Shown: positions 2,478 through 21,106 of the stretch, piece by piece
How the letters are laid out: each line of letters opens with the position of its first letter
How positions within the stretch are numbered: position 1 is the stretch's first letter
NCBI GenBank assembly: GCA_003252455.1
Contig: QKED01000043.1
Coordinates: 1-64,000 of the forward strand
Reading direction: 5' to 3'
DNA from: Gammaproteobacteria bacterium
Lineage (GTDB): Bacteria > Pseudomonadota > Gammaproteobacteria > Thiohalomonadales > Thiohalomonadaceae
DNA: 64,000 bases
Position numbers and translations under genes: made by a program
Notes under the pieces: model-generated
Seen by the model: the letters and a program-made list of their open reading frames with translations, nothing else
Told to the model about the DNA's origin: nothing
Database searches by the model: none

Positions 2478-3626
2478 TCAAGGCATCGCCGGTGGGGTAA
2501 AGAGCTTATGATACTCGCTGAAGGCGTAGCGATCCGTCATCCCTGCGATGTAGTCGGCGACGACGCGCGCCTTTCCAGCCCGGCCATTACGCGCCTCCTG
2601 ATCCCGACAACGCTCTTGATATTGGTTCGGCATCAGCTGTGGGTCCTCGAAAAACAGGTCGAACAGCTCGTGCAGTACGCGCTTCGCCTTGCTCGTCATG
2701 CGGTGGACCCGGTAGTGTCGATAAAGATTGGTACGCAGAAACTGCTTGAGTGAGTGGTGTTGTGCTTGCATCTCTGCACTAAAGGCCACAAGTGGCTGGT
2801 TTAGCGCCCTTACCTCATCCGGGGAGGAGGGCATCGCCGCTATCAGATTGCGGCGCGTCTGCTCAACCAAATCGACCACCTGTCGGTTGATGATACGCCT
2901 GGTCACTTCGTGTATCGCCCGTCGCTCGGCCAGGTCGGGATAGCGATGGCGGACCTCCTCCCATGCATCCGCAAAGAGTTCCACCTCAGATAGCTGTGTC
3001 GGCGTCAGCAACCCTGCACGCAGTCCATCGTCGACATCGTGATTGTTGTATGCAATTGCGTCGACCAGGTTGGCGACTTGTCCCTCAAGACTCGCTTGTC
3101 GACCGGTCAAGAAACGCTCTCCCAACTCACCAAGTGCGGCGGCCTTCTCCAGGTTGCAGTGCTTGAGTATCCCCTCGCGCGTCTCGAAGGTGAGGTTTAG
3201 CCCAGGAAAATCGGCATAGCGCTCTTCCAAGGTATCCACCACGCGTAGCGACTGGAGGTTGTGTTCGAATCCCCCATAATCTTGCATGCAGGCATTCAGC
3301 GCATCCTGTCCCGCATGTCCGAACGGCGTGTGCCCGAGGTCATGGGCCAAGGTGATCGCCTCGATGAGGTCCTCGTTGAGGGCGAGAATACGACACACTG
3401 TGCGCCCAATCTGGGCTACCTCTAATGAGTGCGTCAAGCGCGTACGGTACATATCGCCTTCGTGGTTGATAAAGACCTGGGTCTTGTACTCAAGCCGGCG
3501 AAATGCGCCACAGTGCACAATGCGATCACGATCACGCATGAAGGCATCGCGGTACTGCGGGGAGGGTTCAGCATAGACCCGCCCACGCGAAAGCGAGTCG
3601 CTACAGGCATAGGGGGCCAACGCCAT
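2478..3626 (-). CDS. dgt: Deoxyguanosinetriphosphate triphosphohydrolase-like protein (dGTPase)
   Basis: This 382-residue HD-domain phosphohydrolase hydrolyses dGTP (or dNTPs) to the nucleoside and triphosphate. The metal-binding HD residues are visible in [13 protein letters not shown] (about 64-76) and [14 protein letters not shown] (about 94-107), after the family opening [21 protein letters not shown]. The chosen ATG overlaps the aroB stop as TGATG; a GTG three bases upstream is possible. It is last in aroK-aroB-dgt and probably translationally coupled to aroB. The length suits the shorter dGTPase class rather than the roughly 500-residue E. coli enzyme. Confidence 0.9.
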
Positions 3627-4711
3627 CACCCCACCTCGTGGTGGGCGTCGATGGCGGCAGCGATCTGCTCGGGCGCCACCTCTCCGGTGATGAAGGATTG
3701 CCCGATCCCACGCATCAGCACAAATCGGAGCTTGCCTGCATGTACTTTCTTATCTACGGCCATCAGGTCGAGGAAACGGGCACCACTCATATCGGCAGGG
3801 GCCTTGAGTGGGAGTTTGGCACGGGCCAGCAGGTCACGTATTCGTTCCACCTCATTCGTACCCATCCAACCCATACGTGCCGAGACCTCAGCAGCAAGGA
3901 GCATACCGGTCCCGACTGCCTCACCATGCAGCCACTCGCCATAGCCCATGCCTGTCTCGATGGCGTGACCAAAAGTATGCCCGAGATTGAGCAGGGCACG
4001 CTGTCCGCTCTCACGCTCATCTGATGCAACGATAGCGGCCTTATCGGCGCAGGAGCGCCCTATGGCATAGGCCAGAGCATCGCCATCTAGCGCCATCAGG
4101 GCGTGCATATTCTGCTCCAGCCAGACGAAAAATTCAGGGTCGTTGATCAGGCCGTACTTGATCACCTCAGCGACGCCAGCAGAGAGCTGCCGCGGCTCCA
4201 ACGTACGTAGGGTATCGGTATCAGCAAGCACTAGCTGCGGCTGATGGAAGGCGCCGATCATGTTTTTACCCAGGCGATGGTTCACTCCGGTCTTACCGCC
4301 GACAGATGAGTCAACTTGCGACAGGAGCGTTGTCGGCACCTGGATGAAGGCTACACCGCGCTGATAGCTAGCGGCGGCAAAACCGGTCATGTCGCCGACC
4401 ACCCCACCGCCGAGTGCGATGAGGGTAACCCCACGGTCGAAGCGTGAGGTGAGCAGTTGAGTAAAGATGGCGTCGAGTGTTTCGAGCGTCTTGAATTGCT
4501 CGCCATCGGGCAACACGACTGTGGCAACCTGATAGCCATTCAACAGTGCGAGGAGGCGGTCTAGATAGAGCGGGGCGACGGTCTCGTTAGTCACCACCAG
4601 AACTTGTTTACCAGTGATATGCGGAGTAAGGAGGTCACGACGGTCAATGAGACCAGGACCGATGTAGATCGGATAGCTGCGGCTACCCAGGTCGACAGTG
4701 AGGCTCTTCAT
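3626..4711 (-). CDS. aroB: 3-dehydroquinate synthase
   Basis: It converts DAHP to 3-dehydroquinate, the second step of the shikimate pathway, using NAD and a divalent metal. Seen: [11 protein letters not shown], the glycine-rich [13 protein letters not shown], the [20 protein letters not shown] active-site segment, and the metal ligand region GHTFGHAIE. The start at MKSLTVDLG (4711) fits the family; an in-frame ATG at 4759 would add 16 residues without family support, and neither has a strong ribosome-binding site. At 361 residues it is full length. It lies 72 bases after aroK and overlaps dgt, as in the usual aroKB cluster. Confidence 0.95.
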
Positions 4712-4783
4712 GCGGAGGGGGGTCTCATGGCTGTTAAGAAGGCCATGATTGTAACCCACTTCAGTCGGGTCGCGCAGAGGCAG

Positions 4784-5296
4784 TTAAGCCGACTCTACGC
4801 CTTTGAGAATGGACTTGATCACCGCGCCGACTGAACGGCGCTCTGTGGAGATCTTGATGTCTGCGACCGAGCTGTAAATTGGGTCACGCTCACGGAGGAG
4901 CGCTTCGATCTTTGCACGGGGATTTTCGGTCTGCAGTAGCGGACGATTTTTATCCCGAGCCGTGCGTTTAAAGAGTTGGTCGACGGAGGCCGAGAGATAG
5001 ATGACCCAACCGGTCTCCTTGAGAAGTCGGCGGTTCTCCTCCTTGAGCACTGCCCCACCACCTGTCGCCAATACCAAACGCTCTTCGCTACACAGCCTAG
5101 CGATCATCTCGCTCTCGCGTCGCCGAAAGCCCTCCTCCCCCTCGATCTCGAAGATCGTGGGGATCGTGACACCGGTTCGTTCAACGATCTCATGGTCACT
5201 GTCCTTGAAGGTCCACCCGAGGTGGTTCGCCAGCTGGCGTCCGATGGTGGTCTTACCGACCCCCATCGGACCGATCAGGTAGATGTTTCGAGACAT
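4784..5296 (-). CDS. aroK: Shikimate kinase
   Basis: It phosphorylates shikimate at the 3-hydroxyl with ATP. The 170-residue protein shows the Walker A loop GPMGVGKTTIG (residues 9-19), the substrate-binding DSDHEIVERTG, the GGGAV motif (about 79-83), and a lid with RDKNRPLLQ. Length and start are normal. In most gammaproteobacteria aroK directly follows pilQ; here the roughly 10-kb Ig-like lipoprotein gene separates them. The gap upstream is only 36 bases, so aroK may depend on a promoter inside or upstream of that giant gene. Confidence 0.95.
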   Translation of the reverse strand: MSRNIYLIGPMGVGKTTIGRQLANHLGWTFKDSDHEIVERTGVTIPTIFEIEGEEGFRRRESEMIARLCSEERLVLATGGGAVLKEENRRLLKETGWVIYLSASVDQLFKRTARDKNRPLLQTENPRAKIEALLRERDPIYSSVADIKISTERRSVGAVIKSILKGVESA

Positions 5297-5332: not shown

Positions 5333-8300
5333 TCACGGGGTAACCAGCACACTCACCTCGGAGATACCCGTGGCACCATTACCATCACGTACAGTCAGAC
5401 GGAAACGTAGCTCAGGGTTGGTACTGTCGTAGTAGCTCGGTGAAGTGAAGCTGGCAATGCCGTTGTTGTTGGTGCTGCCGAGGATATAGACGGCCTCTGA
5501 ACCACCGACCTGCTCCCAGTAGTAGCTGATGATCGGGGATGTACCATCCACAGAGGCAGAGCCATTCAGGGTCACTGACTGTGGGCTGGATGCCGAGACA
5601 CTAGCCACTGAGGTCGCTGCCACCGCAGTTGGATAGACATAGCCAGGCGGCAGATCGATATCCACGGGGTTGAACGGTGAGTCATTTAACAAACAACCCT
5701 CTGCCTCCAGAACGGACGCAGGGAGGATGAAGCGCAATATACTGCGAACCTCGGTACCTTCCACCTCCGTAGTGGCAATGACGTCGTTATAGATCCACTC
5801 AGAGAACTGCTTGAGGTAGACCAATTCGAAGGCAGCAACGCCGTTATCATCAGTGGTGACGTACTCGGGGACGGCACCACCTGCCGTGCTGTGCGGAGTC
5901 ATGATGCCATCCGCAGGATAGGCGTCAAAGACATCCTTCTGGGTTGCCAACAGGGTATAACTGTTCGAGGAGGCTTCCCATTCACCGTCATAATTGAGGT
6001 CGACACCCGCTGTACCGTCGGAGTCGGTCTGGTCATATTCATAGATCGCACGATCCTCACCTGCATCGAGGATCAGATTGCGGTAGCGTCCGTCGCCCAA
6101 CCCGTAGCTGTCATCCTCGTTACCGAATGATGCACTGTGCTGGACAACACATATCACCGAACCATCAGGTTTTGTAAAGGGATACCAGATACCGGTCAGG
6201 ATGCGCTCAGGCCAAGTACTGAGGTACACCTTTGCACCAGTGACAGCCTGACCCGCCGCATTGGTGACCAGTACTGACATGGGCAGCGAGTACGTGGCTG
6301 CATTGTAATCGGCAATCTCTGTCCCGTGACCAATTTCGACGGAGCCAGCCTGATCAGTGATGGTTATATCAATGGAGTCAGTAATCGGCGCATTCGGATG
6401 AGCCGTGGCGTCTCCACTCAGCACAGTAACAACAACCCGTACACCCTGTGTCGAAGAGCCGAGCAGACCAGAGGTCAAGGTGGCCTCTACTAAACCCTTC
6501 GAATCTGAGGTGGCCAACACGGGAGAGATGGCCTCACCACCGCCCGCCGCCTGCTCAATAGAGAACTGCACCTTACAACCAGAAACAGGTTGCTGACCAC
6601 TTAGGTAACTGCTCAGGACCCGAGCGGTGATCGCGGCCTCATGCGTGAGAGTGTCGGTGCTGATCGGCAGACTGGTACGGTTTGCCTGAATGATCACCTG
6701 AGCAGCATCATCACAGCTAGCCGCAATATCCACATAAGCCACATCACTACGGCCATCAGAAGAGTCAACCTGGACTGTCGCTGTACCTGCAGCATTGTCG
6801 GACTGAAGGTGTGCGGTAATGGTCGTCTTGCTGGCGGATGCCGGCACAGTCACGGTATAGGTACTTGCTGTGGACTCGGTCCAGTAACCAACACTAGATG
6901 AGAAGGTCACCTCTGTAGCAGATGCACTACCAGGGACAGCGACTGATACCGTAGTGGGTGTACCAATCACGGTCGAGGTCGGATTGATGCTCTCGATCTT
7001 GAAGGCCTCCTCTGAGCGTGTGATGAGGATCGTTTTCGTAACGATCGCCTCAGGATCGACACTCTCCTGAGTCAGGGCCGTAGTTGTCAGGACCACGCTA
7101 CCTGCTGCCAATGCATGAACCTGTCCTTGGAAGTAGCCAAGACGCGGATCGATGATGCCGGAGTTACTGGAAAGGACATTACCATCCGTATCCAACAGCT
7201 CGATAAGACCTCCGCCAACCGAGGTCAGGCTGAAGGTCACTGTGGCATTGGGCACGTTATTTCCACCCGCATCCTGCGCATATACACGCAGATCCGCATA
7301 CGAATCGTTACCAGCGGCGACCTCCAGCGAGTTACCACTTAGGACCACAGTGGTACTGGAGCCAATCACATAGAGGGTTGCCTCACGGGTCATGCTACCG
7401 ACCGTAGCAATCACTCTCAGGCGACGATTCTCACGCAGAGCCGTACCGGAGGAGACATTGACGGTAGCCTGACCAGACTCGTCAGTCACACCCAGTGCCG
7501 CACTTATCTGACCACTGTTGGTGACTGTGAAAGTCACTTCTACACCCTCAATGACAGCACCGTTGGCATCCAATGCAGTTGCAGTAATTGTGCTGATATC
7601 AGAGTTGTCAGACTTGATGTTGTACTGGCTCACAGCAAGCACAAGCTCATCTGGAGGCGTTGGTAAGGTAACGTTAACGGAGAGGGCCGATGACTCTACA
7701 GAGACGTCATCCTTGGCACGGGCAACGATCTCATCAACAGCCACGGTCAAGCCTGCCGTGTAGGTAACGTAAGCATATCCGTTGACGTCTGTGGTGGCAG
7801 ACAGCGAACTCAATGAGCCACCACTATTGTCGTTGGTAACCTCGAAGATCACATTGGCATTCGGAATGACCAGGCCATTGATGTCGAACAGACGAGCCTT
7901 AAGGACAAGCTCATTACCACGGACAACGCTGCTCGAAGCCGCGGTAAGGGAGATAGCACCAACAGCTCCCGCCGTAAACTCGACTGAACCCGAGGCGGTA
8001 AAACCACCAACATTGGCTGAGACAAGCGCATAGCCTGTGGTTGCCGCCGTATGAGGCGTCACGCTGTTATCACTGGAGGTCAACAGATAAACAGTGGCAC
8101 GGCCAAAGCTATCAGTGGTGACTGCACCCGACACGTTATTCGTTGAGTTGGTGCTACTCAGATCCTTCAAGAGCTTACCCTTGCTGGTATTGAAGAGCAC
8201 CTGCTGGCCTGCTATTGGGACACCGTCCGTATCCAATACGGTAACGCGTAGCATTGTCGTAGTATTGCCATCTGCGACGAGCGTGCTATTGGCTACGGTC

Positions 8301-11300
8301 ATCACCATGTCACCGATCACCTGCGCATCCAGCTCTACAACCAGGGCACCCTCGTCACCCAAGATGTTAGCAACGCCATTGCTAGCAACGCGCGCCGAGA
8401 CCTTGTCGATTACCGACGCGGCACTATTGGTACCAGTCGTATATGCCACGGTAGCTTCGCCATTCGCATTCGTGACGGCTGAAACACTGTCGGTGAAGTT
8501 GCCTCCACTCGGATTGCTGTAGATGGAGAAGATCACTGTTTCACCGACAACCGGACGGCCCGCATCGTCAACGACCTTTGCAACGAACTTGGCCTGGCTA
8601 CCAGGGGTAACACTGCTCGGAAGCGCGCTGATCGTTAGCCCATCCGGGGCGCCAGCAACCATCTGTACGGTAACGAAATCGGAGAGTCCATTAGATGAAA
8701 CGGTAATCTTGGCTGTACCAACCTCAGTAGCAGTGAACGTGGAACGCGCAACACCGTACTTATCAGAGACCACGCTACTTGACCCCAGGGCCCCTGCATT
8801 GGATGAGAAGGTCACAGTCTGCCCTTGGAGCACACGACCTTGCAGGTCGTATACCACCGCAGTAATTACCGTCTCTTCGCTGATGGCAAGCGAGTCTGCA
8901 CCGGTCTCCGCGGTAATCTCACCAACTAGTGCCTGTGTGGCCTTGAGGGTATAGGTAGCACTACCTTTCACGCTCTGGTTACTCGCCACCACAGCATTGA
9001 TGACGACTGAATCAGTACCTGTTGAGGCAAATACATCATTACTGTCGACATAAATGGTGGCGACACCCTGGGCATTGGTCACCGCACTGCTTGTCTGGAA
9101 TTCACCATTGTGCACATCGGGCGAGTCGAAGTCGAAATTGACCACCTCACCTACAACAGGGTGGTTCCCCCCATTGTCGGCGGCAATGACTAGAGCCCTA
9201 ACTTCAATGGTGGTGTACGGCGCCGCAGTAGTAGGAGCCGTCACCACAGTCACCCCCGTGGGCGAACCAGCAATCATCTCCATTTGCAGAGATGCCTCGA
9301 ATCCACCTGCCAACGCAGTCACCTTGAGTGTACCCAGCGCCTTTGTGCTAGTCAGAGTGACATTAGCTATGCCATTCACGGTAGCAACCGGTGAAGTGGT
9401 AGAGAGAGTCCCCAGTGAGGGGTTACTGAGCGCGAACGTTACCTCTGTACCATCTGGTGCTGGGTCGCCATTGATATCGACCACCTGAGCACGCAGACCT
9501 GTGCTGCTACTACCATTGGCAACCAACTCTGTCGAACCAGACGAAACACTGATGCCATTGATGAGCTGTGCACCACTGACAGAGACTGTTGCCAGCGCAG
9601 AGGGTGCAATGCCATTGCTATCTGCACGGGCAGTAAAGCTGTCTGTCGTGTTGTTTGTCGTACCAGCGATGTAAGTCGTCGTCGCCAGGCCATCTACACC
9701 TGAAACAGCGGTAATGGACTGTAAGCTGCCGCCACTCTTATTACTGTAAACACTGAAGATCACCGTCTCGCCCGAGATGGGGTTACTATTCCCGTCTAGC
9801 AGGCTGGTTGTCAGCTTCACTTCGCCGCCAGGTGTAGTAGTAGTGGGCGATGCTTTGATCGAAATGCTTGCAGGTAGACCCGCAACAAACTTCACATAGT
9901 CAACACCATAGAACCCATTGGATTCGGCAACGACACGTGCAGTGCCGACCTTGGTGGTTGAACGTAGATACAGTTCAGCGATGCCCTGGCTGTTGGTGTC
10001 CACTGACTCGTCGGCACCCAGAGAAGTACCGTTGGTACGGTCGTAGAACGAACCCAACGAGGTCGTAAAGTTGACTGCGACGCCGCTGACTGTGTTACCA
10101 GAAGAGTCAGTCACGATAGCCCTGACCTTGACCAGGTTCGTCGCAGAGTTGTCGGCGATGATGGAAGCCGCACCCAATACCATCTCGACATTGTTTACAA
10201 CAGCAACAGAGGAGGTGCTACTGATGGTGAGGTCAACCTCCTTGGTGAGACCATTACGACTAACCACAATTTTGAGTTTATCAAAGCCGGATGAGACTAG
10301 GTCACCCGCCTCGTAGATCGCTGTCGCAATACCATTCTGATTCGACACCGCCACAGGCGTAGTGAAACTACCGCCACTCGCGTTGGTGGAACCACTGGAG
10401 AATCGAACCTCCTCACCACTGACAGGGTTGTTGTTGGCATCGGTGATAGTGGCGCGCACTTGGACCGTCGCTAGCGGATTAACCGTAGTGGGAGAAAGCA
10501 GTACTGAGATTGCTGTTGGCATTCCAGCGACAAAGGGGATCTCCTTCGTATCGATGAAGCCCGAGGCGGAAGCAGTCACTAGTGCTGTGCCAGCCGTAGT
10601 AGACGCCTTCAGATACAGATAGGCATAACCATTGGTATCGGTCTGCGCAGAGCTAGCCGTGACATTTGAACTATCCACAAGGGACCCGAGTGTAGTTGCA
10701 AATACAACGCTGATCCCAGGTACCGCTGCACCGTCGGTAGCGAGTACCTGTGCCCGTACTTGCACGAGACTGCTGCCATCAGCTACAACATTCTCCGCAC
10801 CACTCGCCAGCGTGAGACTACCGATTACATACCCTGTTGTTGTTGCTTTCACTGAAAGTGACAGTGATTGGGAAATCCCATTGCTATTCACTGTGGCCTT
10901 GAGTGAGTCGCTGACGTCAGCCTTATCACCAGTGGTATAGGTGACCATTGCCTGGCCATTAGCATCGGTCTGACTCGACACACTTCCAAGTGTACCGCCA
11001 CTGAGGTTGGTCGAAATACTGAAACGCACTGTATCGCCAACCACTGGATTACCATAGCGGTCGGAGACTGTCGCAATAAGAGCGACATCACTTGAGGGGG
11101 TTGCGATTGCAGGCTGGGCGCCAAGACTCACCGTATACGGATCGGCTGCAGTAAAGGCTACCTGTGCACTGCCCGTAAAGCCCTTAACATAAGCAGTGAT
11201 CTGTGCGGTTCCAACGCTCTCAACCAGACCAGTGGATTTATTGAGTGTACGCAGCCGCACTTGAGCATACCCATCCACCGTCGACACGGGGAAGCCCGTA

Positions 11301-14300
11301 GGTAGCTCGGTGCCGGTGTCAACATCGAATAGTGTACCCAGAGTACTGGTAAAGACAACGTCGACCCCGGAGACGAGTTGGCCATTGATGTCGACAACCG
11401 CTGCTCTCAATAGAGTTGAGCCTTCCGTGCCACTGGTAGCACTACTGACCTTGACCGCCGTACTACCAGTAACCACAGAGACACCGCCGATAAGTGTGGC
11501 AGCTGAATCCACCTCTATACCTATAGTGGATTTCAAACCGGTACTACTAATCGTAACTTGCAGTACATCCGTAGTGCTGGACGAACCACTCGGTAGAGTA
11601 CCGCTGGTGTAGCTAAACGTAATCAAGCCACTACCATTCGTAACCACACTACTCTGGCTAAGCGAACCGCCCGTCTTATTGTCTGAAACTACTAGGTTGA
11701 CTGTTTCACCAACAACTGGGTTGTCATTCGAATCCAAGACTTGGACCGTCACAGTTGTACTGGAGTTGGGCTGGATCGTTTCAGGAGCAGCAGTGATGTT
11801 CACCTTAGACGCAGGGCCGGCAACGAAATCAATGCTGACGCTGCGCACGTACCCACCTGCAGATGCCGTTACGAGAGCTGAGCCAGCAGGTACAGGGAGA
11901 TCACTTACGCTCTTCGTCCAGAGATAAACCTCTGCAACACCACTCGTGTTGGTGACGACTGGCGTGGTAGAGCTGATCACAGTACCGTCAAGTGTACGTA
12001 GTGTGCCGAGTGTCGTGGTCAGCACGATCGTCTGACCAGATATACCTAGCCCAGACTGATCGACAACTAAAACACGGACGATCGCGCTACTCGCACCATC
12101 AGCCATGATCTCACTGGCACCTGTGGTAATGGTTACTGCGCCGACATGGACCTCAGTGGCAGCGACCTGAAGGTACGCGATGCTTGCGACACCCGTACTC
12201 GTAGCCACAGCCTTGATCTGGATCTCGGTGCCCACTACTTGAGTGCCAGGTTGGTAGGTTACGGTTGCGCGACCATTAACATCTGTCTGAACGCTCAGAC
12301 TGCTGAGCGTACCTGCACCCTTGATGATGTCGAATCGTACTTGCTCGCCAGTTACAACGTTACTATTGGCGTCCTGTACCACGACAGAAAGAGTAACCGT
12401 TGAATTAGGGGAGATCTCGATCGGTGCCGCCGCAGTCGAACTGCTCTGCCAAATTACTGAACTTGCAGAATCAGCCACGAATTCGATTGAAACAGACCCT
12501 GAGATCCCGCCTGCATTGACGTCGATCCGTGCAGTGCCAAGACCCACTGCCCCACCGGCACCGTCATTGGTACTGATGTATGTCTGGGCATAACCTTCGC
12601 TATCAGTCGCCTTGGTTACACTCTTGGCTGTGGGTTCAACCGCACCATTAAGTTCGACGAAGTTACCCAATGTGGTATTAAAGTCCACATCGTAGTTACT
12701 CACAGCTACACCGTTTGAGTCGATAACACGTGCGCGGACAAGGAGCTTGCTACTCCCATCCGCAACCAACGTTGTACCACCACTCTCAATCTGGATTGCA
12801 CCGATGACAACACTCTCTACCTGAATTTTCAAAGTAAGAGTGCTCTTGGCAATAGTGCTACTTGCTGCACGTGCCTCAAGGACATCAGAACCGACAATAC
12901 TTCCAGCCTTGTATTCTACGGTTGCATCGCCATTGGAGTTTGTAACCACCTGTACACTAGTCAGCGTACCGCCACTGGTATTAGTCGAAACAGAGAAGTT
13001 AACGGTCTCACCACTGACACGATTTCCATTACTGTCGGTTACGGTTGCAGTCAGCGTCGCGATACCGCCTGGAGCAACACTGGTCGAAATAGCAGAGAGA
13101 GTGAGTGTGTTAGGTGTTCCTGCAACAAAATCGATTGTCACCTGGTCGTTGAAGCCATTGGTCGATGCAGTAACCACGGATTTACCAGTAGTAGAAGTCG
13201 AGGTGAGTGTCACACTCGCATACCCAAGTGAATCCGTGGTCGCCGTTGCTGCACTTAGTCCACCGAGTGATGCACTGAACGAAACGGTTTGCCCAGCTAC
13301 TGCGCTACCGTTGACGTCGCTCACCTTTGCTCGAACTTGCAACGTTGAAGTACCGTCAGCGGTAATTTGCGTACCACCAGTTGTAATCTCAATCGCATTG
13401 ACGATGGCAATCGCATCAACGGCAATGTCGGTCGTGACAGGGTCTAATGCAATACTAGCCACACGTGCCTGAACGGTATCAGTGCCAGTTTTATCGCCAG
13501 CGGTATATGTGACCTTTGCATCACCATTAAGGTCCGTAACTGCCTGGTATGCAGAAAAACTACCACTACTTTGATTCACCGTCTGGGAGAAGATCACAGT
13601 CTCTCCCACAACCGGGTTTCCATTCGTATCAGTCACACGTGCATTAATTAATGTACTAGAGAGTGGGCTTACTGTAACAGGTGTCGAGGTAACTTGGATA
13701 TTTGCAGCCTCACCTGCAATAAAATCCACCTTCAGTGTGCTATGAAAGCCACTGGTATCCACGGATACCGATGCACTACCACTAACTAGGCTACTAGTAA
13801 GATTGGCGCTCACGCGGCCATTGCTGTCGGTGATTAACGTCGTACTCTTAGCACCAGAAAAACTACCGAGTGACGTAGTAAAGGTAACAGCTTTACCTGG
13901 AAGCACTGCACCACTAACGTCATACACAATGGCAACAATCGAAACGATACTTTGACCATCAGCAGTGATTGATGGCGACACGGCAGATGCTGTAAGGGCA
14001 CCAACTACGACAGCACTGCTACTTACAGGCACCAAAGTCGTCGTCGTACGGCTATTTCCCAGCACCTTCGTCGTAATCAGGTCCTCATCGTTTTCGCACC
14101 CGACAAGAGAATTTTCGAGATTTGTCCCAGCCGTGTAGGTAATTCGTGCTTCACCATTCGCATCTGTCGACTTGTTCGTATCTGACAGCAAGCCTCCGGT
14201 GCAATTTCTTGTAACAGTGAAGATTAGTGCCTCACTTGAAACTGGTAGACCGTTCACGTCCTGAACCGTCGATGTCAGTGTGACACTACCGCCGGGGTTG

Positions 14301-15451
14301 ATAGAACTGGGGGTAGCGACAGTCGCAAGATTGGTAGGATCACCAGCAACAACAGCAATCTCCACGTCCTCGGTAAAGCCACCGGCCGTAACACGCACAA
14401 CAGCCGTACCCAAACCTACTGATTTGGTGCGTAGATTCAGTGTTGCGACACCGCTACTGTCAGTGGTTACAGTCATGTGTGTATCGGTATACACAACACC
14501 GTCGATATCAAACTGTGCGATGGTTGGATTGAGTAGCTGGAACTGAACGTTATATCCACTCACATCCACACCACTTGGGTCTCGCAACCTTACGTTGATA
14601 GCAGCCTTGCTTGTCCCATCTGCCACAAGCTCAGCAGCACCAGTGGTAACATTCATCAAATCGATAGTGACGCCATCATTCGTGACTTCTACTTCGGCAT
14701 CGTTTGAGGTAACGCCGTTACTTATAACGGTGGCACGGATTTTATCAATGGCATTATCAGATGAGTAATCCTTACTACCAGCAATGTAGGTTACACTCGC
14801 TTCCCCATTCGCATTAGTCGTTGCAGTAGTAGTCGGGATACTAGGTGCTTCTTCACCTTTACTCGAATCATCGACAATGGCAAAGCGTAATGTACTTCCA
14901 CTCACCAAATTCCCGGCAATATCAGTCACCCGAGCGTACACCGTAGATTGTGTACCAGGATTCAGAATCGCAGGATTGATCCATGCAAGTACAGCTGCAG
15001 GCGGGCCAGCAACAAGAGTGATAGAAGTCTGATAGTTCAGACCGCCACTAGAAGCAGTGATAGTCGCGATACCCGATTTAAGCCCAGCTGAAAACATGAC
15101 TTGCGCATAGCCATATTCATCTGAGATTACAGTTGTCAAGCTATTACCGCTAAAACTACCCAGAGTCGTACTCAAGACGACCGTCGCACCCTTGATAGGA
15201 ATGCTATTAATATCGAGTATCCTAGCGCGAACATAGACATCGTTGGATGTGCCGTCGGCAACCAGACTCCCCTGCGCACCCGTCGTGACTTCTACCGACC
15301 CAAACCGAGTCGTGGGGTCTACAACGACATATTCTCCGGTATTACTACCACCTGTTGTACCACCAGAAGTCCACGCGCTCCCATCACCACATGAGGCGAC
15401 ACCGAAAGCGATAAGAAGCAGAATCAGAAATCTATACATTGCTTTAGCCAT
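5333..15451 (-). CDS. Giant Ig-like (Big_1/invasin-type) repeat lipoprotein
   Basis: The product is a lipoprotein of about 3372 residues. MAKAM is followed by a hydrophobic stretch and a lipobox ending VASC with the acylated Cys at about 21. The residue after Cys is Gly, so no inner-membrane-retention Asp is at +2. From about residue 50 to 2590 there are 12 two-domain units of about 210 residues. The first domain of each opens with 'ADGxS...VRAxVxDxxG...TTLG' and ends near 'FVAG'. The second opens near 'xPGG...TAxVxDxxGNPVxGExVxFS' with 'SGGxL...TxxNGxAxVxYxAG'. Four looser Ig-like domains follow (about 2599-3035). Then comes an Asp-rich segment (GNEDDSYGLGDGR, LDAGED, DLNYDGEW) that may bind calcium, and a final PKD-like domain (about 3280-3372). 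The ATG at 15451 has GAGG upstream; a TTG 18 bases earlier is possible. By architecture it should be an outer-membrane-anchored fibre or adhesin; its ligand is unknown. It is probably co-transcribed with the pilus operon. Confidence 0.85.
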   Translation of the reverse strand: MAKAMYRFLILLLIAFGVASCGDGSAWTSGGTTGGSNTGEYVVVDPTTRFGSVEVTTGAQGSLVADGTSNDVYVRARILDINSIPIKGATVVLSTTLGSFSGNSLTTVISDEYGYAQVMFSAGLKSGIATITASSGGLNYQTSITLVAGPPAAVLAWINPAILNPGTQSTVYARVTDIAGNLVSGSTLRFAIVDDSSKGEEAPSIPTTTATTNANGEASVTYIAGSKDYSSDNAIDKIRATVISNGVTSNDAEVEVTNDGVTIDLMNVTTGAAELVADGTSKAAINVRLRDPSGVDVSGYNVQFQLLNPTIAQFDIDGVVYTDTHMTVTTDSSGVATLNLRTKSVGLGTAVVRVTAGGFTEDVEIAVVAGDPTNLATVATPSSINPGGSVTLTSTVQDVNGLPVSSEALIFTVTRNCTGGLLSDTNKSTDANGEARITYTAGTNLENSLVGCENDEDLITTKVLGNSRTTTTLVPVSSSAVVVGALTASAVSPSITADGQSIVSIVAIVYDVSGAVLPGKAVTFTTSLGSFSGAKSTTLITDSNGRVSANLTSSLVSGSASVSVDTSGFHSTLKVDFIAGEAANIQVTSTPVTVSPLSSTLINARVTDTNGNPVVGETVIFSQTVNQSSGSFSAYQAVTDLNGDAKVTYTAGDKTGTDTVQARVASIALDPVTTDIAVDAIAIVNAIEITTGGTQITADGTSTLQVRAKVSDVNGSAVAGQTVSFSASLGGLSAATATTDSLGYASVTLTSTSTTGKSVVTASTNGFNDQVTIDFVAGTPNTLTLSAISTSVAPGGIATLTATVTDSNGNRVSGETVNFSVSTNTSGGTLTSVQVVTNSNGDATVEYKAGSIVGSDVLEARAASSTIAKSTLTLKIQVESVVIGAIQIESGGTTLVADGSSKLLVRARVIDSNGVAVSNYDVDFNTTLGNFVELNGAVEPTAKSVTKATDSEGYAQTYISTNDGAGGAVGLGTARIDVNAGGISGSVSIEFVADSASSVIWQSSSTAAAPIEISPNSTVTLSVVVQDANSNVVTGEQVRFDIIKGAGTLSSLSVQTDVNGRATVTYQPGTQVVGTEIQIKAVATSTGVASIAYLQVAATEVHVGAVTITTGASEIMADGASSAIVRVLVVDQSGLGISGQTIVLTTTLGTLRTLDGTVISSTTPVVTNTSGVAEVYLWTKSVSDLPVPAGSALVTASAGGYVRSVSIDFVAGPASKVNITAAPETIQPNSSTTVTVQVLDSNDNPVVGETVNLVVSDNKTGGSLSQSSVVTNGSGLITFSYTSGTLPSGSSSTTDVLQVTISSTGLKSTIGIEVDSAATLIGGVSVVTGSTAVKVSSATSGTEGSTLLRAAVVDINGQLVSGVDVVFTSTLGTLFDVDTGTELPTGFPVSTVDGYAQVRLRTLNKSTGLVESVGTAQITAYVKGFTGSAQVAFTAADPYTVSLGAQPAIATPSSDVALIATVSDRYGNPVVGDTVRFSISTNLSGGTLGSVSSQTDANGQAMVTYTTGDKADVSDSLKATVNSNGISQSLSLSVKATTTGYVIGSLTLASGAENVVADGSSLVQVRAQVLATDGAAVPGISVVFATTLGSLVDSSNVTASSAQTDTNGYAYLYLKASTTAGTALVTASASGFIDTKEIPFVAGMPTAISVLLSPTTVNPLATVQVRATITDANNNPVSGEEVRFSSGSTNASGGSFTTPVAVSNQNGIATAIYEAGDLVSSGFDKLKIVVSRNGLTKEVDLTISSTSSVAVVNNVEMVLGAASIIADNSATNLVKVRAIVTDSSGNTVSGVAVNFTTSLGSFYDRTNGTSLGADESVDTNSQGIAELYLRSTTKVGTARVVAESNGFYGVDYVKFVAGLPASISIKASPTTTTPGGEVKLTTSLLDGNSNPISGETVIFSVYSNKSGGSLQSITAVSGVDGLATTTYIAGTTNNTTDSFTARADSNGIAPSALATVSVSGAQLINGISVSSGSTELVANGSSSTGLRAQVVDINGDPAPDGTEVTFALSNPSLGTLSTTSPVATVNGIANVTLTSTKALGTLKVTALAGGFEASLQMEMIAGSPTGVTVVTAPTTAAPYTTIEVRALVIAADNGGNHPVVGEVVNFDFDSPDVHNGEFQTSSAVTNAQGVATIYVDSNDVFASTGTDSVVINAVVASNQSVKGSATYTLKATQALVGEITAETGADSLAISEETVITAVVYDLQGRVLQGQTVTFSSNAGALGSSSVVSDKYGVARSTFTATEVGTAKITVSSNGLSDFVTVQMVAGAPDGLTISALPSSVTPGSQAKFVAKVVDDAGRPVVGETVIFSIYSNPSGGNFTDSVSAVTNANGEATVAYTTGTNSAASVIDKVSARVASNGVANILGDEGALVVELDAQVIGDMVMTVANSTLVADGNTTTMLRVTVLDTDGVPIAGQQVLFNTSKGKLLKDLSSTNSTNNVSGAVTTDSFGRATVYLLTSSDNSVTPHTAATTGYALVSANVGGFTASGSVEFTAGAVGAISLTAASSSVVRGNELVLKARLFDINGLVIPNANVIFEVTNDNSGGSLSSLSATTDVNGYAYVTYTAGLTVAVDEIVARAKDDVSVESSALSVNVTLPTPPDELVLAVSQYNIKSDNSDISTITATALDANGAVIEGVEVTFTVTNSGQISAALGVTDESGQATVNVSSGTALRENRRLRVIATVGSMTREATLYVIGSSTTVVLSGNSLEVAAGNDSYADLRVYAQDAGGNNVPNATVTFSLTSVGGGLIELLDTDGNVLSSNSGIIDPRLGYFQGQVHALAAGSVVLTTTALTQESVDPEAIVTKTILITRSEEAFKIESINPTSTVIGTPTTVSVAVPGSASATEVTFSSSVGYWTESTASTYTVTVPASASKTTITAHLQSDNAAGTATVQVDSSDGRSDVAYVDIAASCDDAAQVIIQANRTSLPISTDTLTHEAAITARVLSSYLSGQQPVSGCKVQFSIEQAAGGGEAISPVLATSDSKGLVEATLTSGLLGSSTQGVRVVVTVLSGDATAHPNAPITDSIDITITDQAGSVEIGHGTEIADYNAATYSLPMSVLVTNAAGQAVTGAKVYLSTWPERILTGIWYPFTKPDGSVICVVQHSASFGNEDDSYGLGDGRYRNLILDAGEDRAIYEYDQTDSDGTAGVDLNYDGEWEASSNSYTLLATQKDVFDAYPADGIMTPHSTAGGAVPEYVTTDDNGVAAFELVYLKQFSEWIYNDVIATTEVEGTEVRSILRFILPASVLEAEGCLLNDSPFNPVDIDLPPGYVYPTAVAATSVASVSASSPQSVTLNGSASVDGTSPIISYYWEQVGGSEAVYILGSTNNNGIASFTSPSYYDSTNPELRFRLTVRDGNGATGISEVSVLVTP

Positions 15452-15470
15452 TGCCTTTACCTCGGTCAAA

Positions 15471-15494
15471 TCCCCAGCTCAATCAAGCCGGGGA
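15471..15494 (-). promoter_or_regulatory. Hairpin between pilQ and the giant Ig-like gene
   Basis: In minus-strand RNA a 9-bp stem (one G-U pair) closes a 6-base loop, followed by UUU. It lies 27 bases after the pilQ stop and 19 bases before the ATG of the giant gene. It may be a weak terminator or attenuator lowering expression of the giant gene relative to pilMNOPQ, or an RNA-stabilising end for the pil message. Its U-tract is too short for confidence in termination. Confidence 0.45.
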
Positions 15495-15520
15495 TCCACA
15501 CACTCGGATATTCTTGCCTG

Positions 15521-18163
15521 TCAGTTTGTAGTTAAACCATCTTTGAGAATCTTCGGTGTGACGAAGATCAGCAATTCAGATTTGTTATTAGTCTGACTCG
15601 TGTGCCTAAAGAGTCGCCCAACAAGCGGCAGATCACCGAGGAACGGTACCTTATTGGTCGCCTTGGTCGAATCCTGTTCGTAGATACCCCCGAGGACCAC
15701 TGTATCACCATTATTCACCAGGACTTGGGTGGTAACTGCACGGGTATCGATGGTCGGGATACTGTTATAAATGGCGCCAACACTATCTTTGCTCACCTTC
15801 AGGTCCATTATTACCCTGTCGTCAGGCGTAATCTGTGGAGTAACGCTTAATCCCAGTACGGCCTTTTTAAACGCTACAGTCGTAGCACCACTCGAGCTGG
15901 CCTCTTGGTACGGCACTTCCACACCTGATTCGATAGTTGCCTCTTTCTGGTTGGAGGTAATAACCCGAGGACTTGAGATAACTTCACCGCCGCCCTCCTG
16001 TTGCATCGCTGAAAGCTCCAGGTCCACAAGGTAATCTGCACCAAGGATCGCTAATGCGATTGAGCCTGAAGTGCTGGTGGTCGGTAGGTTCACATTCAGT
16101 CGGTCATCAATGGTGCCAATCTCAACTGGATACGCACTCCCTGTTGAAGCAAGGCTATCGAGTGCGCTTGAGACTGTCGTATCAGTGCCTGTCGCCGACC
16201 CAGATGTCGTTACAATCCCGCTCGCACCATTGTCAGAGATTTGCGTCACACCAAAGCGAGTTCCTAATTCCTTCGAGAAGTTGTCACTCGCAATCACAAT
16301 TCGCGATTCAATCAACACCTGTTTGACTGGTACATCGAGGCGCTTGATAAGTCGTCCGATTTCTTCAAGTTTTTCAACGGTATCCATGATCATCAGAGTG
16401 TTGGTACGTTCATCCAAAGTCACATTACCGCGTGGCGACAGGATGGAGTTTTCCTTCTGCTTTATCAGGGCAGCAATTTCGCTCGCTTTGGCATAGTTGA
16501 TCTGGAAGAAATCTGTCTTGAGCGGTACCAGCTCTTCAACTTTTTTGCGTGCTTCCAATTCAAGTGATTCACGCTGTGCGATCTCATCGTTCGGTGCAAT
16601 CAGGATCACGTTACCGCTCTGACGCATACCTAGGCCCTTAGTTTTCAAAATGATATCGAGTGCCTGATCCCAAGGTACGTTCTTTAGTCGCAGAGTAATA
16701 TTTCCAGTAACAGTGTCACTGGCCACAATGTTGAGGCCGGTGAACTCTGCGATCAGCTGCAGTACAGCTCGCACATCGATATTCTGGAAATTGAGCGATA
16801 GTTTTTCGCCAGTAAACTCACCCTCTTCACGCTTACGCGTGTCTGACTCGGCTTTGATGATGGGTTTGACCTCAATGGTGTACGAATCGCCCGCCTGATA
16901 TGCCAGATGCTCGTATTCACCAGCGGCAGAGATCGCAAGTCGAGTATTTCCATTGTGGTTATACGAGTCGATAGAGATCACTGGCGTAGCGAAATCAGTT
17001 ACATCTAGTCTGCGCTCAAGCTCATCAGGGAGCTTTGTATTTAGGATATCGATGATGATTTTCCCGCCAGACTCTTTGAGATCTACGACTGCGTCGGGGT
17101 CATCGAGTACCACCACGATCTTGCCTTCACCATCTATACCACGACGAAAATCGATATTCTCCACAGTAGCCATCGGAGCCAAGGACGGTGCACTGGGGAG
17201 CAATGAGCGAGCTATGCTACTGCCGCTCTCTTCATCACTCCGCTGCCGGCCACCACTCTGCAGTTCGATTAGGATCATCTTACCCTCAGTGCGGATGTTG
17301 TACGGCACCATACGTGCAAGACTTACAACCACACGGGTCACGCCGCCCGATTCGACCAGTCGAATGTCACGCGCAACACCGACACTCAGGGGGACCACGC
17401 GCTTATTCATACCCAGTTTGGTATTGGCTAGGTCGATCGCAATGCGCGCAGGGTTTTCCGTCGCGAAGTTACTCGGCACCACACCTTCGACGTCAGTATT
17501 GTGAATTAAACGGATCTGAATGCGATCACCAGGTAACTTGGAGAAATTTACCTCTTCCAGCTCGATTCCACGGGCTAAAGCTGCCGGAGCAACCATTGCA
17601 GTTGCCGTTGTTGCTGGTACCGGAGGTGTTGTAGCTAGTGTCGCAGCTGATGTTGCGGCCGGCGGGAGCACTACCTCACTGCCCGAGGTTGCCGCTACAG
17701 GCGTCGTGTCTGCGGTAGCTCTCGCGGGGCGGACACCTTCATATAGATTGATAAACAGCGCATTGTCCTTCTCCTGGATTTCATAGGAGACCTTACGCGT
17801 GAGGTTGATAAGGACGCGCGTCGAACCTACCGCCTGAACCGCCAATACATTCTTTGCGATCGGCGAATTAATCGAGACGGCCTGATTACGCAACTCAAGC
17901 CCGGTCTCAGGCAGTTCGATTAGAAGTCGAGCCGGGTTATCCATGAAGCGCGCAGAAGGGACTATGTCACTCACCAAGCCAGAGAGAACAAGCTTTACTT
18001 GCAAACTACCATCAGGGCTTTGCTCATAGCCTATATCTTGCAGCGAGAATCGCTCATTGGCGGCGTGTGCGATACCCACACCGCCAAAAATGAACAGCAC
18101 CATGCAGAGGGCTTTGAACATCCGCATAGTGTTGATTGCTGTCGTTTGAATTGCTCTGTTCAT
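15521..18163 (-). CDS. pilQ: Type IV pilus secretin PilQ
   Basis: It forms the outer-membrane ring through which the type IV pilus passes. The 880-residue precursor has an N-terminal signal peptide (after AHA), AMIN-type domains that bind peptidoglycan (about 25-130, and others around 190-400), a secretin N0/N1 region (LSLNFQNIDVRAVLQLIAEFTGLN), and the C-terminal secretin barrel with VPYQEA and the closing VPFLGDLPLVGRLFR segment. A Pro/Ala/Thr-rich linker lies near residues 145-185. The ATG at 18163, 17 bases after the pilP stop, is preferred to the upstream GTG at 18187 that overlaps pilP. It is last in pilMNOPQ. Confidence 0.95.
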   Translation of the reverse strand: MNRAIQTTAINTMRMFKALCMVLFIFGGVGIAHAANERFSLQDIGYEQSPDGSLQVKLVLSGLVSDIVPSARFMDNPARLLIELPETGLELRNQAVSINSPIAKNVLAVQAVGSTRVLINLTRKVSYEIQEKDNALFINLYEGVRPARATADTTPVAATSGSEVVLPPAATSAATLATTPPVPATTATAMVAPAALARGIELEEVNFSKLPGDRIQIRLIHNTDVEGVVPSNFATENPARIAIDLANTKLGMNKRVVPLSVGVARDIRLVESGGVTRVVVSLARMVPYNIRTEGKMILIELQSGGRQRSDEESGSSIARSLLPSAPSLAPMATVENIDFRRGIDGEGKIVVVLDDPDAVVDLKESGGKIIIDILNTKLPDELERRLDVTDFATPVISIDSYNHNGNTRLAISAAGEYEHLAYQAGDSYTIEVKPIIKAESDTRKREEGEFTGEKLSLNFQNIDVRAVLQLIAEFTGLNIVASDTVTGNITLRLKNVPWDQALDIILKTKGLGMRQSGNVILIAPNDEIAQRESLELEARKKVEELVPLKTDFFQINYAKASEIAALIKQKENSILSPRGNVTLDERTNTLMIMDTVEKLEEIGRLIKRLDVPVKQVLIESRIVIASDNFSKELGTRFGVTQISDNGASGIVTTSGSATGTDTTVSSALDSLASTGSAYPVEIGTIDDRLNVNLPTTSTSGSIALAILGADYLVDLELSAMQQEGGGEVISSPRVITSNQKEATIESGVEVPYQEASSSGATTVAFKKAVLGLSVTPQITPDDRVIMDLKVSKDSVGAIYNSIPTIDTRAVTTQVLVNNGDTVVLGGIYEQDSTKATNKVPFLGDLPLVGRLFRHTSQTNNKSELLIFVTPKILKDGLTTN

Positions 18164-18179
18164 TGCTATAACTCGCCTG

Positions 18180-18722
18180 TTAATCACTCAGACTGATCGC
18201 TGCATCGCGCTCGACCCAACCGCCTAGAACACTCTGGACGATCTCCACAAGGTCGATCTTGGTTTCACTAATTGAAACGATTCGTCCGTGGTTCTGACCC
18301 ATGTACCTACCCACACTGACACGATGTACCAAACCCGTTGGATCGAGAATGATCGCCTCCCGGTCACCGCTCTTCTCTAGGTGGCCAAGGAACTTCAGCG
18401 AATCGAGCGGGAACTGCTCCAACGCTTCGGGATTCCGCAAGGGGTCCGGGGCTAATCCACTGTTGTCCACAGCATCCTGCGGGATAATCGACTCCTTCTC
18501 CGCACGGGTGAAGGGGTCGCGGCTATGCTCAACGGGATATGGGAAAGAGTCCGTCGCCTTGAACTCGGGGACTGGGGGTATACGCCCTGGCTTGCGCGCC
18601 TTGATCGTATTGACGTACTCCACCAAATCACCGTGCTCTTTCTTGCTACAACCTGCAGCTAGACCGAGCACCGCGATTCCGACAAATAGCCGCAGCAGGT
18701 ATGTGCTCTTGCGTGTATTCAT
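18180..18722 (-). CDS. pilP: Type IV pilus inner-membrane lipoprotein PilP
   Basis: It links the inner-membrane PilNO complex to the PilQ secretin. The 180-residue protein has a lipoprotein signal ending LAAGC (Cys 25), a natively loose region with DPFTRAE, then the beta-rich HR domain (LDSLKFLGHLEKSGDREAIILDPTG... VHRVSVGRYMGQNHGRI). AGGAA is placed 7 bases before the ATG. Length and order are as in other gammaproteobacteria. The 67-base gap to pilO is the largest within the operon. Confidence 0.93.
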   Translation of the reverse strand: MNTRKSTYLLRLFVGIAVLGLAAGCSKKEHGDLVEYVNTIKARKPGRIPPVPEFKATDSFPYPVEHSRDPFTRAEKESIIPQDAVDNSGLAPDPLRNPEALEQFPLDSLKFLGHLEKSGDREAIILDPTGLVHRVSVGRYMGQNHGRIVSISETKIDLVEIVQSVLGGWVERDAAISLSD

Positions 18723-18789
18723 TCCGTCATTCCTGCGCCAATGTTATGAGCCGAGGGACAAATTCTCCCTGACGTCAACCGCAGATCCA

Positions 18790-19437
18790 TCATTTTTTGC
18801 GTTTTCCCTTATCTGCCGAGCGGGCCGCAGCGATCTCGGTCTCATCCAGATAGCGGTAAGTCTTGGCCACTGCATCCATCGTCAGATTCCCTTTAGGTTG
18901 CCCCTTGGCCTGACTTGCAGTGATCCGCACATCGTGCATGGTTACAATGCGGGGTAGCGCAGCAACACCACCAATAAATTCACCAAATTCATGAAAATTG
19001 CCGACGACCTTCAGCGCAATGGGCAATTCGGCGTAGAACTCCTGCCCCACCTCGGTCTGCGGCTTGAACAGCTCGAAATCGAGTCCACTGGAGAGGCCTG
19101 TCTGGGTGATGTCTACCAAAAGGTCAGCAACCTCGGTACGGCTTGGGAGCTGGCGCAGCATCGTGCCGAAGGTCTCTTCCATTTCACGTAACTGGCGTTT
19201 GTAGCCATCAAGGTTCGATGCCTTGAGTTGCTTGGTCTCGAAGTCACTCTTCAGACTCTCCTCGCGTCTCTCCGCCTGACTCAGTTCCTCGAGCTGCACC
19301 TTAGTGTCGAACCAGTAACCTGCCCCTGCACAGAGAATACAAATCACCAGGATCAGCAATGCCCGCACTGCTAGCGGGGCACTACCTATATTCTCGAAGT
19401 CGATATTTTGCAGGTCGTTGAGGTCGATATTCTTCAT
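18790..19437 (-). CDS. pilO: Type IV pilus alignment protein PilO
   Basis: This bitopic inner-membrane protein (215 residues) pairs with PilN. It has a short cytoplasmic N-terminus rich in Asp/Asn (NIDLNDLQNIDFENIG), one membrane segment (about 23-42), a coiled-coil stretch (about 50-95), and a periplasmic ferredoxin-like core including LPSRTEVADLLVDITQTGLSSG. The C-terminus is lysine-rich (GKRKK). The start ATG overlaps the pilN stop by 4 bases, which implies coupled translation. Confidence 0.93.
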   Translation of the reverse strand: MKNIDLNDLQNIDFENIGSAPLAVRALLILVICILCAGAGYWFDTKVQLEELSQAERREESLKSDFETKQLKASNLDGYKRQLREMEETFGTMLRQLPSRTEVADLLVDITQTGLSSGLDFELFKPQTEVGQEFYAELPIALKVVGNFHEFGEFIGGVAALPRIVTMHDVRITASQAKGQPKGNLTMDAVAKTYRYLDETEIAAARSADKGKRKK

Positions 19438-20008
19438 GAACCAGCCTCCGCTTTAGGCTCTTCCTCGTCAGGTGAGGTCTGCATCAGCCGCAGCGTAAAG
19501 CTACGCTCACGTGCATCACCCGCACCCGCCGCAGAGATCACATCCAGTACAGGCTCCTTCAGCCACGGTGAGGCCTCGAGATTGCGCATAAAGGCAGAGA
19601 CACGGGCATTGGATTCCGCCATTCCCTCAATGGTCAGGGCCCGACCGCTCTGGGTCAGGCTGGTCAGATAGAGGCCGTCGGGTACGCTGTTGGCAATCTC
19701 ATCAAACAGGTGCACCGCCTCGGGGCGATTACGCTGCAGACGCTCGATGACTCGCATACGAGCTACAATCTGCTCGCGTTGCTTAGCCAATTCCTCGATC
19801 TGCTTGATCTTCCCCTCGACGATACGGATCTCTTCTTCGAGGAAGCTGTTGCGCGAGTGCTGGTTCTCGATGAGACCGTTCACCTGCATGTGGATAGCGA
19901 CCAAGAGCAGACCGGTAATAAGGACAGCGACGCCAGCGGCAATAGCGAAGTCTCGCTGCCGCTGCTTGCGTAGGTCCGCGCGCCAAGGGAGTAGGTTGAT
20001 CTTCGCCA

Positions 20009-20009: not shown

Positions 20010-21106
<1,097 letters not shown>

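What the first reader, a model, noticed from the sequence alone, without database searches (positions are those of the whole stretch)
5333..15451. Giant Ig-like lipoprotein gene inserted between pilQ and aroK
The sequence shows a lipobox, 12 alternating two-domain Ig units, four looser Ig domains, an Asp-rich region and a PKD-like end, in one frame of about 3372 residues. In most gammaproteobacteria pilQ is directly followed by aroK. Here a surface-fibre gene occupies that slot on the same strand, 69 bases after pilQ. Inference: an extra-long adhesin or pilus-associated tether whose production is linked to type IV pilus assembly, possibly exported or displayed through its partnership with PilQ. 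I do not know of a described system with this arrangement.
Basis: partly seen in the sequence, partly recalled or inferred. Interest (0 to 1): 0.8.

Follow-up and report, generated by a model that had tools for sequence, protein, structure and literature searches.

The report
Ig-repeat lipoprotein in type IV pilus operon
A very long chain of immunoglobulin-like domains, probably a lipid-anchored surface fibre, is encoded directly behind the outer-membrane pore gene of type IV pili, and shorter relatives recur at that same spot in many other bacteria, which points to a pilus partner that may not have been described.

Summary
The gene is real: one 3372-residue minus-strand frame (ATG 15451, stop 5333) with lipobox, twelve two-domain Ig units, looser Ig domains, an Asp-rich cap and a PKD end, 69 bp after pilQ and 36 bp before aroK. 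It is not a one-off insertion. An Ig gene follows pilQ in 11 of 20 genomes of the window's order, in 22 of 80 named pilQ loci and in 6 of 98 class-wide loci; the median slot protein is 635 aa. The gene follows pilQ rather than aroK: in seven genomes of four families aroK is not next door and the Ig gene still follows pilQ (two genomes show the reverse). Outside the window's order, terminator-like hairpins lie after the Ig gene (16 of 25), seldom directly behind pilQ (2 of 25), so there it looks like the last cistron of a pilMNOPQ-X unit. The window itself differs: a hairpin follows pilQ and none precedes aroK. Cap-bearing relatives also lie elsewhere (26 of 44 genomes). Function is inferred: an outer-membrane-anchored stalk or adhesin working with the pilus. 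Nine searches of an open-access library found no description.

The parts
5333..15451 (-). Ig-repeat lipoprotein gene, 3372 aa from ATG 15451; gene product X of pilMNOPQ-X
15386..15451 (-). lipoprotein signal and lipobox VASC|G, Cys at residue 21; Gly at +2, Asp at +3
   Evidence: motif read by eye, no signal-peptide predictor available
7379..15265 (-). array of 25 clear Big_1 domains, residues 63-2691; the first 24 make 12 two-domain units
6455..7318 (-). looser Ig domains, about residues 2712-2999 (three weak profile matches)
5600..6346 (-). C-terminal cap domain with Asp/Asn-rich loops, homologous to caps of other pilQ-linked lipoproteins
5342..5590 (-). K319L-like PKD domain at the very end, absent from the other caps in the alignment
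15469..15496 (-). 12-bp hairpin with 4-nt loop and no T run, in the 69 bp between pilQ and the Ig gene
15521..18187 (-). pilQ, type IV pilus secretin
18180..21085 (-). pilP, pilO, pilN, pilM, upstream in the same direction
4784..5296 (-). aroK, shikimate kinase, 36 bp downstream
3626..4759 (-). aroB

Best explanation
The gene encodes an expanded member of a recurrent kind of Ig-repeat (Big_1) lipoprotein that sits as the last cistron of the type IV pilus operon, pilM-N-O-P-Q-X. Shown by sequence: lipobox, Ig array, a C-terminal cap with Asp-rich loops shared with other pilQ-linked members, position behind pilQ, recurrence there. Inferred: the protein is lipidated and sent to the outer membrane; the Ig array makes an acidic, perhaps Ca2+-stabilised stalk; the cap is held away from the cell near the sites where pili leave through PilQ, and acts as an accessory adhesin or tether used together with the pilus. 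Lineages change its reach by adding or losing Ig domains (244 to 3372 aa seen). How it crosses the outer membrane is unknown.
For: Recurrence: 11 of 20 genomes of the order, 22 of 80 named loci, 6 of 98 class-wide loci. Of 28 slot proteins aligned, 26 match Big_1. A lipobox was found by pattern in 30 of 38 slot ORFs (fragments included), Asp at +2 in none of the 30. Ig frame starts a median of 42 bp after pilQ (only pilQ's strand and the first 400 bp were examined). Seven genomes of four families keep it behind pilQ without aroK next door. Terminator-like hairpins: 60 of 137 empty pilQ|aroK gaps, 17 of 34 Ig|aroK gaps, 3 of 34 stretches directly behind pilQ in Ig loci, 9 of 178 controls inside pilQ (Fisher p 1e-4 and 4e-4). 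Shared cap. Confident beads-on-a-string model of a 631-aa relative (pLDDT 85.5), with FdeC, invasin and intimin the highest by Z. The genome has two PilT-family ATPases over the cut-off. Analogue: plasmid Big proteins that need a pilus machine for export and bind the pilus (PMC8730810, passages).
Against: 87 of 98 class-wide pilQ loci lack it, so it is no core pilus part. Cap-bearing genes lie elsewhere in 26 of 44 genomes, beside aroK only in 2. In the window's own order the hairpin argument fails: the window has a hairpin without T run behind pilQ and none before aroK, and only 1 of 9 Ig|aroK gaps there has a hairpin. PilY1 was not found in the window's genome, so how complete the pilus is stays open. 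Nothing shows surface exposure, Ca2+ binding or adhesion.
Confidence: 0.5

Rival explanations
1. An ordinary fibrillar surface adhesin that only shares regulation with the pilus: it is expressed from the pil operon so that both attachment tools appear together, but has no physical contact with PilQ or the pilus.
For: Cap-bearing relatives work away from pilQ in 26 of 44 genomes. The fold is that of stand-alone adhesins. Strong length variation does not fit a fixed role in a machine of constant size.
Against: Repeated and retained adjacency to pilQ itself would also be met by any co-regulated site, so this rival is not excluded, only less economical.
Confidence: 0.32
2. A periplasmic or outer-membrane structural helper of PilQ, like the PilW/PilF lipoprotein, that braces the secretin and needs no surface exposure.
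For: Lipobox, position right behind pilQ; lipoproteins that act on PilQ are known (PMC10191384, passages). A member of five or six domains could roughly span the periplasm (my estimate of about 4 nm per domain, not computed).
Against: Proteins of 1500-3372 aa would be several times longer than the periplasm is wide; most pilQ loci do without it; no TPR or other pilotin domain was matched.
Confidence: 0.1
3. Insertion hotspot: the pilQ-aroK boundary is a permissive place where mobile adhesin genes land, with no functional tie.
For: Occupancy is patchy on the PilQ tree (19 changes) and the cap family changes place often (11 changes); two genomes keep the gene with aroK only.
Against: Most occupants are one kind of gene (22 of 27 occupied named loci carry Big_1-like domains). 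Outside the order the hairpin usually lies beyond the Ig gene rather than behind pilQ. The gene stays with pilQ in seven genomes without aroK next door. Both labels are more clustered on the trees than in any of 500 shuffles.
Confidence: 0.08

Closest known systems
Intimin/invasin family passengers (intimin, invasin, FdeC, InvD, InvE; inverse autotransporters)
   Same: Tandem Big_1-type domains; profile of 28 slot proteins matches intimin, InvE, invasin and InvD chains (E 4e-14 to 9e-7); model of L096 matches FdeC, invasin and intimin at Z 14.3, 14.0, 13.9.
   Different: Lipoprotein signal instead of an N-terminal beta-barrel; no LysM, barrel or lectin family among the Pfam matches; lies in a pilus operon.
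RSP and RSP2, Big-domain proteins of conjugative plasmid R27
   Same: Ig-domain proteins encoded with a pilus machine; the paper reports export depending on that machine and binding to the conjugative pilus (PMC8730810, abstract and passages).
   Different: Plasmid transfer region and type IV secretion, not type IV pili; the words 'lipoprotein' and 'signal peptide' do not occur in the paper; no sequence comparison made here.
Leptospira LigA/LigB
   Same: Lipid-anchored, surface-exposed Ig-repeat adhesins (recalled; reviews seen only as listings); a LigA segment is among the fold matches (Z 10.8).
   Different: Spirochaete, Big_2-type domains (recalled), no pil operon.
PilW/PilF outer-membrane lipoprotein and PilY1/PilC
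   Same: Lipoprotein acting on PilQ, and large non-pilin adhesin of type IVa pili, respectively (PMC10191384, passages).
   Different: Neither is an Ig-repeat protein; the slot gene matches neither PF05567 nor a TPR family.
BapP of Pseudoalteromonas tunicata
   Same: Large Ig-like protein proposed as Ca2+-dependent biofilm adhesin (PMC12153261, passages).
   Different: Passages seen place no Ig gene beside pilQ; not compared by sequence.

Membership tests
Big_1 (PF02369) Ig-repeat proteins | Domains matching the family above its curated cut-off | tested here: met
   582 bits against a cut-off of 34.9, 23 stretches; 26 of 28 slot proteins match at E 0.01 or better
Bacterial lipoproteins | Hydrophobic signal ending in a lipobox Cys | tested here: met
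   VASC at residues 18-21; pattern found in 30 of 38 slot ORFs. Motif only; no dedicated predictor or experiment
Inverse autotransporters (intimin/invasin, type Ve) | N-terminal outer-membrane beta-barrel, often with LysM | tested here: not met
   No such family among Pfam or NCBIfam matches of P0001 except the Ig part of the intimin model, 47 bits against a cut-off of 1400
Type I secreted giant adhesins (LapA/RTX kind) | C-terminal RTX repeats and secretion signal, no N-terminal lipobox | tested here: not met
   No RTX family among Pfam matches; lipobox present
Core type IVa pilus components | Encoded in the pilus locus | tested here: met
   69 bp after pilQ; recurrent there
Core type IVa pilus components | Present wherever the machine is present | tested here: not met
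   Absent from the slot in 87 of 98 class-wide pilQ loci
PilY1/PilC pilus-tip adhesins | PF05567 domain | tested here: not met
   Not among the Pfam matches of P0001 or of the 28 slot proteins
RSP-like Big proteins of pilus machines | Export by, and binding to, the pilus system that encodes them | not testable with these tools
   Needs localisation and binding experiments; analogue taken from PMC8730810

The most novel reading that the evidence does not exclude
A previously unnamed accessory part of type IVa pili: a lipid-anchored Ig stalk of adjustable length, made as the last cistron of pilMNOPQ-X, that reaches the surface with the help of the PilQ secretin and tethers the pilus or its targets at the pilus exit. 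PilQ would then also be a display route for a lipoprotein.
Probability: 0.2. Interest if true: 0.8.

Novelty: new variant of a known kind. Interest (0 to 1): 0.55.

Why it matters
The pilMNOPQ operon is among the best studied in bacteria, yet a recurrent large gene at its end, seen here mostly in uncultured lineages, is not described in the papers I could search. If it acts with the pilus it adds a length-tunable surface fibre to the pilus toolkit, parallel to plasmid Big proteins that use a conjugative pilus machine, and gives a single deletable gene with which to ask how pilus exit sites and adhesins are coordinated.

Tried and rejected
PilY1 replacement. PF05567 is not found in the window's genome (the 14 control genomes did not ring either, so the class search, 233 of 370, served as positive control). 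Rejected as a general idea: in the order 7 of 12 genomes with a lipoprotein in the slot (G003 counted) and 4 of 6 empty ones have PilY1 (slot states); in the class 13 of 16 pilQ-linked cap genomes against 220 of the other 354, p 0.18.

Cap as a pilus-only marker: rejected, 26 of 44 genomes carry it away from both pilQ and aroK (some of these lie at contig ends, and for them PilQ was seen on another contig, or, for G287, not at all).

PilQ co-occurrence with the cap: 42 of 44 against 256 of 326, p 0.007. Not corrected for genome size or ancestry, so not used as main evidence.

First hairpin scans were partly misleading because the first codons of aroK form a hairpin of their own; one search stops before an estimated aroK start and adds a control. 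In one search four rows (L086, L101, L186, L275) rest on a frame that may not be the whole Ig gene, and in four (L070, L073, L074, L267) no gap was left; without the first four the counts become 15 of 30 and 3 of 30 (recount, noted).

Counts and borderline rows: the 6 Ig loci include L233, whose PilQ is a fragment at a contig end, and leave out L202, which had one weak Ig match. 'Other' content: 1 of 16 order loci, 5 of 80 named, 5 of 98 class-wide; at least L067, L121, L202 and L216 are lipobox ORFs without an Ig match under the threshold.

Others: a 'lipo-invert' NCBIfam match (1 of 28 members, E 0.0028) was not found again in the ten members rescanned and was dropped. The window's own C-terminal model was poor (pLDDT 56.9) and was not searched. 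The window's C-terminal region matched no solved structure by sequence. The Foldseek list by E-value was headed by unrelated Ig-string proteins at low TM.

Literature: nine searches. None listed a paper on an Ig gene behind pilQ; one search held 3,516 papers of which 25 were listed. PMC10587679 holds pilQ, aroK and Ig-like, but its table shows pilQ followed by aroK and the Ig text concerns chaperone-usher pili (passages). PMC7616799: passages only, nothing relevant. Subscription papers and preprints were not searchable.

Full report
WHAT IS THERE. The window holds one uninterrupted minus-strand frame, 5333-15469 from a TTG, best started at the ATG at 15451, which has a GAGG box upstream. It gives 3372 residues with a lipoprotein signal ending in VASC|GDG. 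Pfam finds Big_1 in 23 stretches and Invasin_D3 in 17, and a PKD domain at the end. A profile made from the protein's own domains places 25 clear Ig domains between residues 63 and 2691, then weaker ones. Cut at every second domain they make 12 two-domain units of 199-229 residues that are 26-41% identical in protein and 36-53% in DNA, so the array is not a recent DNA amplification. The protein is acidic (298 Asp+Glu, 144 Lys+Arg, calculated pI 4.24) and has seven cysteines. On the same strand pilM, pilN, pilO, pilP and pilQ lie before it, aroK, aroB and a dGTP triphosphohydrolase gene after it. The own genome has two PilT-family ATPases over the family cut-off; PilY1 was not found.

NOT A ONE-OFF. 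The window's GTDB order is held as 20 genomes of one family. From the positions of PilQ and AroK and fetched stretches, 11 of 20 have an Ig lipoprotein gene behind pilQ; one (G003) has a 625-aa lipobox protein without a Pfam match; six are empty (G002, G006, G011, G013, G014, G015); two (G004, G010) cannot be decided because of contig ends or a missing PilQ match. Complete frames run from 543 to 3372 aa (and the window). A scan of named genomes with a PilQ alignment kept 80 loci: 22 have the Ig gene in the slot, 5 other content, 50 are empty, 3 undecided. Among the 22 are MAGs called Ectothiorhodospiraceae (L087), Chromatiales (L092, L115), Natronospiraceae (L134) and Thiogranum (L140). In a class-wide sample 133 of 149 genomes had AroK; I fetched 120 of the 134 AroK places. 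Of the 98 with PilQ in sight, 87 are empty, 6 have the Ig gene and 5 something else.

ONE KIND OF GENE IN THE SLOT. Of 28 slot proteins aligned, 26 match Big_1; NCBIfam offers only weak matches, mostly the Ig part of intimin. The median of 30 slot proteins without obvious truncation is 635 aa (8 of 38 ORFs dropped as fragments or broken frames; the window is not among them). A lipobox was found by pattern in 30 of 38 slot ORFs, with Gly at +2 in 22 and Asp in none; Asp at +2 is the classical inner-membrane retention signal (recalled). The alignment shows at least two subtypes. One, to which the window belongs, ends in a cap: a cysteine before an E-D pair, Asp/Asn-rich loops of the form D.N.NG, a Y...W core, GTE, and in most members a PPG..SPFG....C tail. 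The window's cap is 22-25% identical to ten caps from outside the order that I aligned except L173 and L168 (43% and 30%), and 32-33% to two from within; it has lost the exact tail and carries a PKD domain instead. The loops look like Ca2+ sites; that is inference from the motif. AlphaFold2 for the 631-aa relative L096 gives a confident string of Ig domains plus cap (pLDDT 85.5); the highest matches by Z are FdeC (14.3, 268 residues, rmsd 9.2), invasin (14.0) and intimin (13.9), as for any bent string of alike domains with large rmsd. The window's own C-terminus modelled poorly.

TIED TO pilQ RATHER THAN TO aroK. Three results point the same way. First, in 40 of 41 pilQ-linked loci a lipobox frame starts a median of 42 bp after the pilQ stop, range -23 to 276 (the script looked only on pilQ's strand and within 400 bp). 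Second, in seven genomes of four families (G001; G049, G177, G269; G079, G196; G091) the Ig gene follows pilQ although aroK is not next to it: no AroK within about 1.5 kb of the cap, other neighbours downstream, and for G001, G049, G079 and G091 AroK lies elsewhere; for G177, G196 and G269 AroK was not located. Two genomes (G038, G263) show the reverse, the Ig gene beside aroK with pilQ on another contig. Third, terminator-like hairpins (stem of at least 7 pairs, at least 3 T in the next 8) occur in 60 of 137 empty pilQ|aroK gaps, in 17 of 34 Ig|aroK gaps and in 3 of 34 stretches of about 70 nt behind pilQ in Ig loci; 9 of 178 control stretches inside pilQ have one (Fisher p 1e-4 and 4e-4). 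Outside the window's order the contrast is 16 of 25 against 2 of 25. There the Ig gene appears to lie inside the pil unit, before its terminator. These loci are related, so the p values overstate independence.

THE WINDOW DIFFERS HERE. A 12-bp hairpin without a T run lies between pilQ and the Ig gene (z -2.63), and no counted hairpin lies in the 36 bp before aroK. In its order only 1 of 9 Ig|aroK gaps has a hairpin. The window's hairpin could lower read-through or protect pilQ mRNA. The promoter scan found no sigma-70-like site in either gap, which is weak evidence.

ELSEWHERE. A profile of the cap found 44 of 370 class genomes. In 16 the gene lies behind pilQ (G179 by coordinates at a contig end), in 2 beside aroK only, in 26 elsewhere. 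On a cap tree of 57 rows the location 'behind pilQ' needs 11 changes against 19.1 when shuffled (0 of 500 as low); on a PilQ tree of 164 rows Ig occupancy needs 19 against 32.0 (0 of 500). The gene moves or is lost often, but is found at pilQ far more than an unlinked gene would be. Both are quick trees with many weak branches, and neither separates gain from loss.

MECHANISM. Shown: signal, Ig stalk, cap, place in the pil locus, recurrence. Inferred: lipidation, outer-membrane location, surface exposure, adhesion or tethering together with the pilus. Length favours the surface: at roughly 4 nm per Ig domain (my estimate) a 25-domain chain is several times longer than the periplasm is wide. 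The export route is unknown; no beta-barrel or RTX domain was matched. A working analogue exists: RSP and RSP2, Big proteins encoded in the transfer region of plasmid R27, need its conjugative machinery to leave the cell and bind its pilus (PMC8730810, abstract and passages). Replacement of PilY1 was tested and rejected as a general rule.

VERDICT. Observation confirmed; interpretation partly supported; a new variant of a known kind (Big_1 fibrillar proteins) in a recurrent setting that I did not find described in nine searches of an open-access library.

Noticed in passing
window 15521-18187: PilQ of the window is 888 aa; the full-length relatives in the order are 686-761 aa. Its residues of about 16-170 align to the same part of relatives as residues from about 190 on, so it seems to carry an extra N-terminal AMIN domain.
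   Followed up: partly
window 82-1115: Two overlapping frames with integrase core (rve_3) matches, probably pieces of an insertion sequence.
   Followed up: no
G000:C87:103776-104312 and G000:C11:7977-8186 (own genome): Two further giant frames with Big_1 matches, 2432 and 4823 aa open frame; no second cap gene in the own genome.
   Followed up: no
L085 1695-5357 (G001:C1, about 2.44 Mb): A second cap-bearing lipobox gene (1221 aa frame) in a genome that also has one behind pilQ; the next gene looks by eye like lgt, prolipoprotein diacylglyceryl transferase.
   Followed up: no
L336 3458-16001 and L337 3958-15401: Two giant cap-bearing genes in tandem (1781 and at least 2434 aa; 1586 and at least 2136 aa) away from pilQ.
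   Followed up: no
L066 13098-16001: Three nearly identical 314-aa frames in a row (the third cut by the end of the stretch) after the 3036-aa Ig gene that follows pilQ.
   Followed up: no
empty pilQ-aroK gaps, 137 loci: 100 of 137 have a hairpin of at least 7 pairs and 60 a terminator-like one, so pil and aro genes are often separated by a terminator although they are usually drawn as one cluster.
   Followed up: partly
L325 7696-8349 and L326 7830-8492: Small proteins of 218-221 aa that are hardly more than the cap, beside genes that look by eye like a TRAP transporter; the cap may have a role of its own.
   Followed up: no
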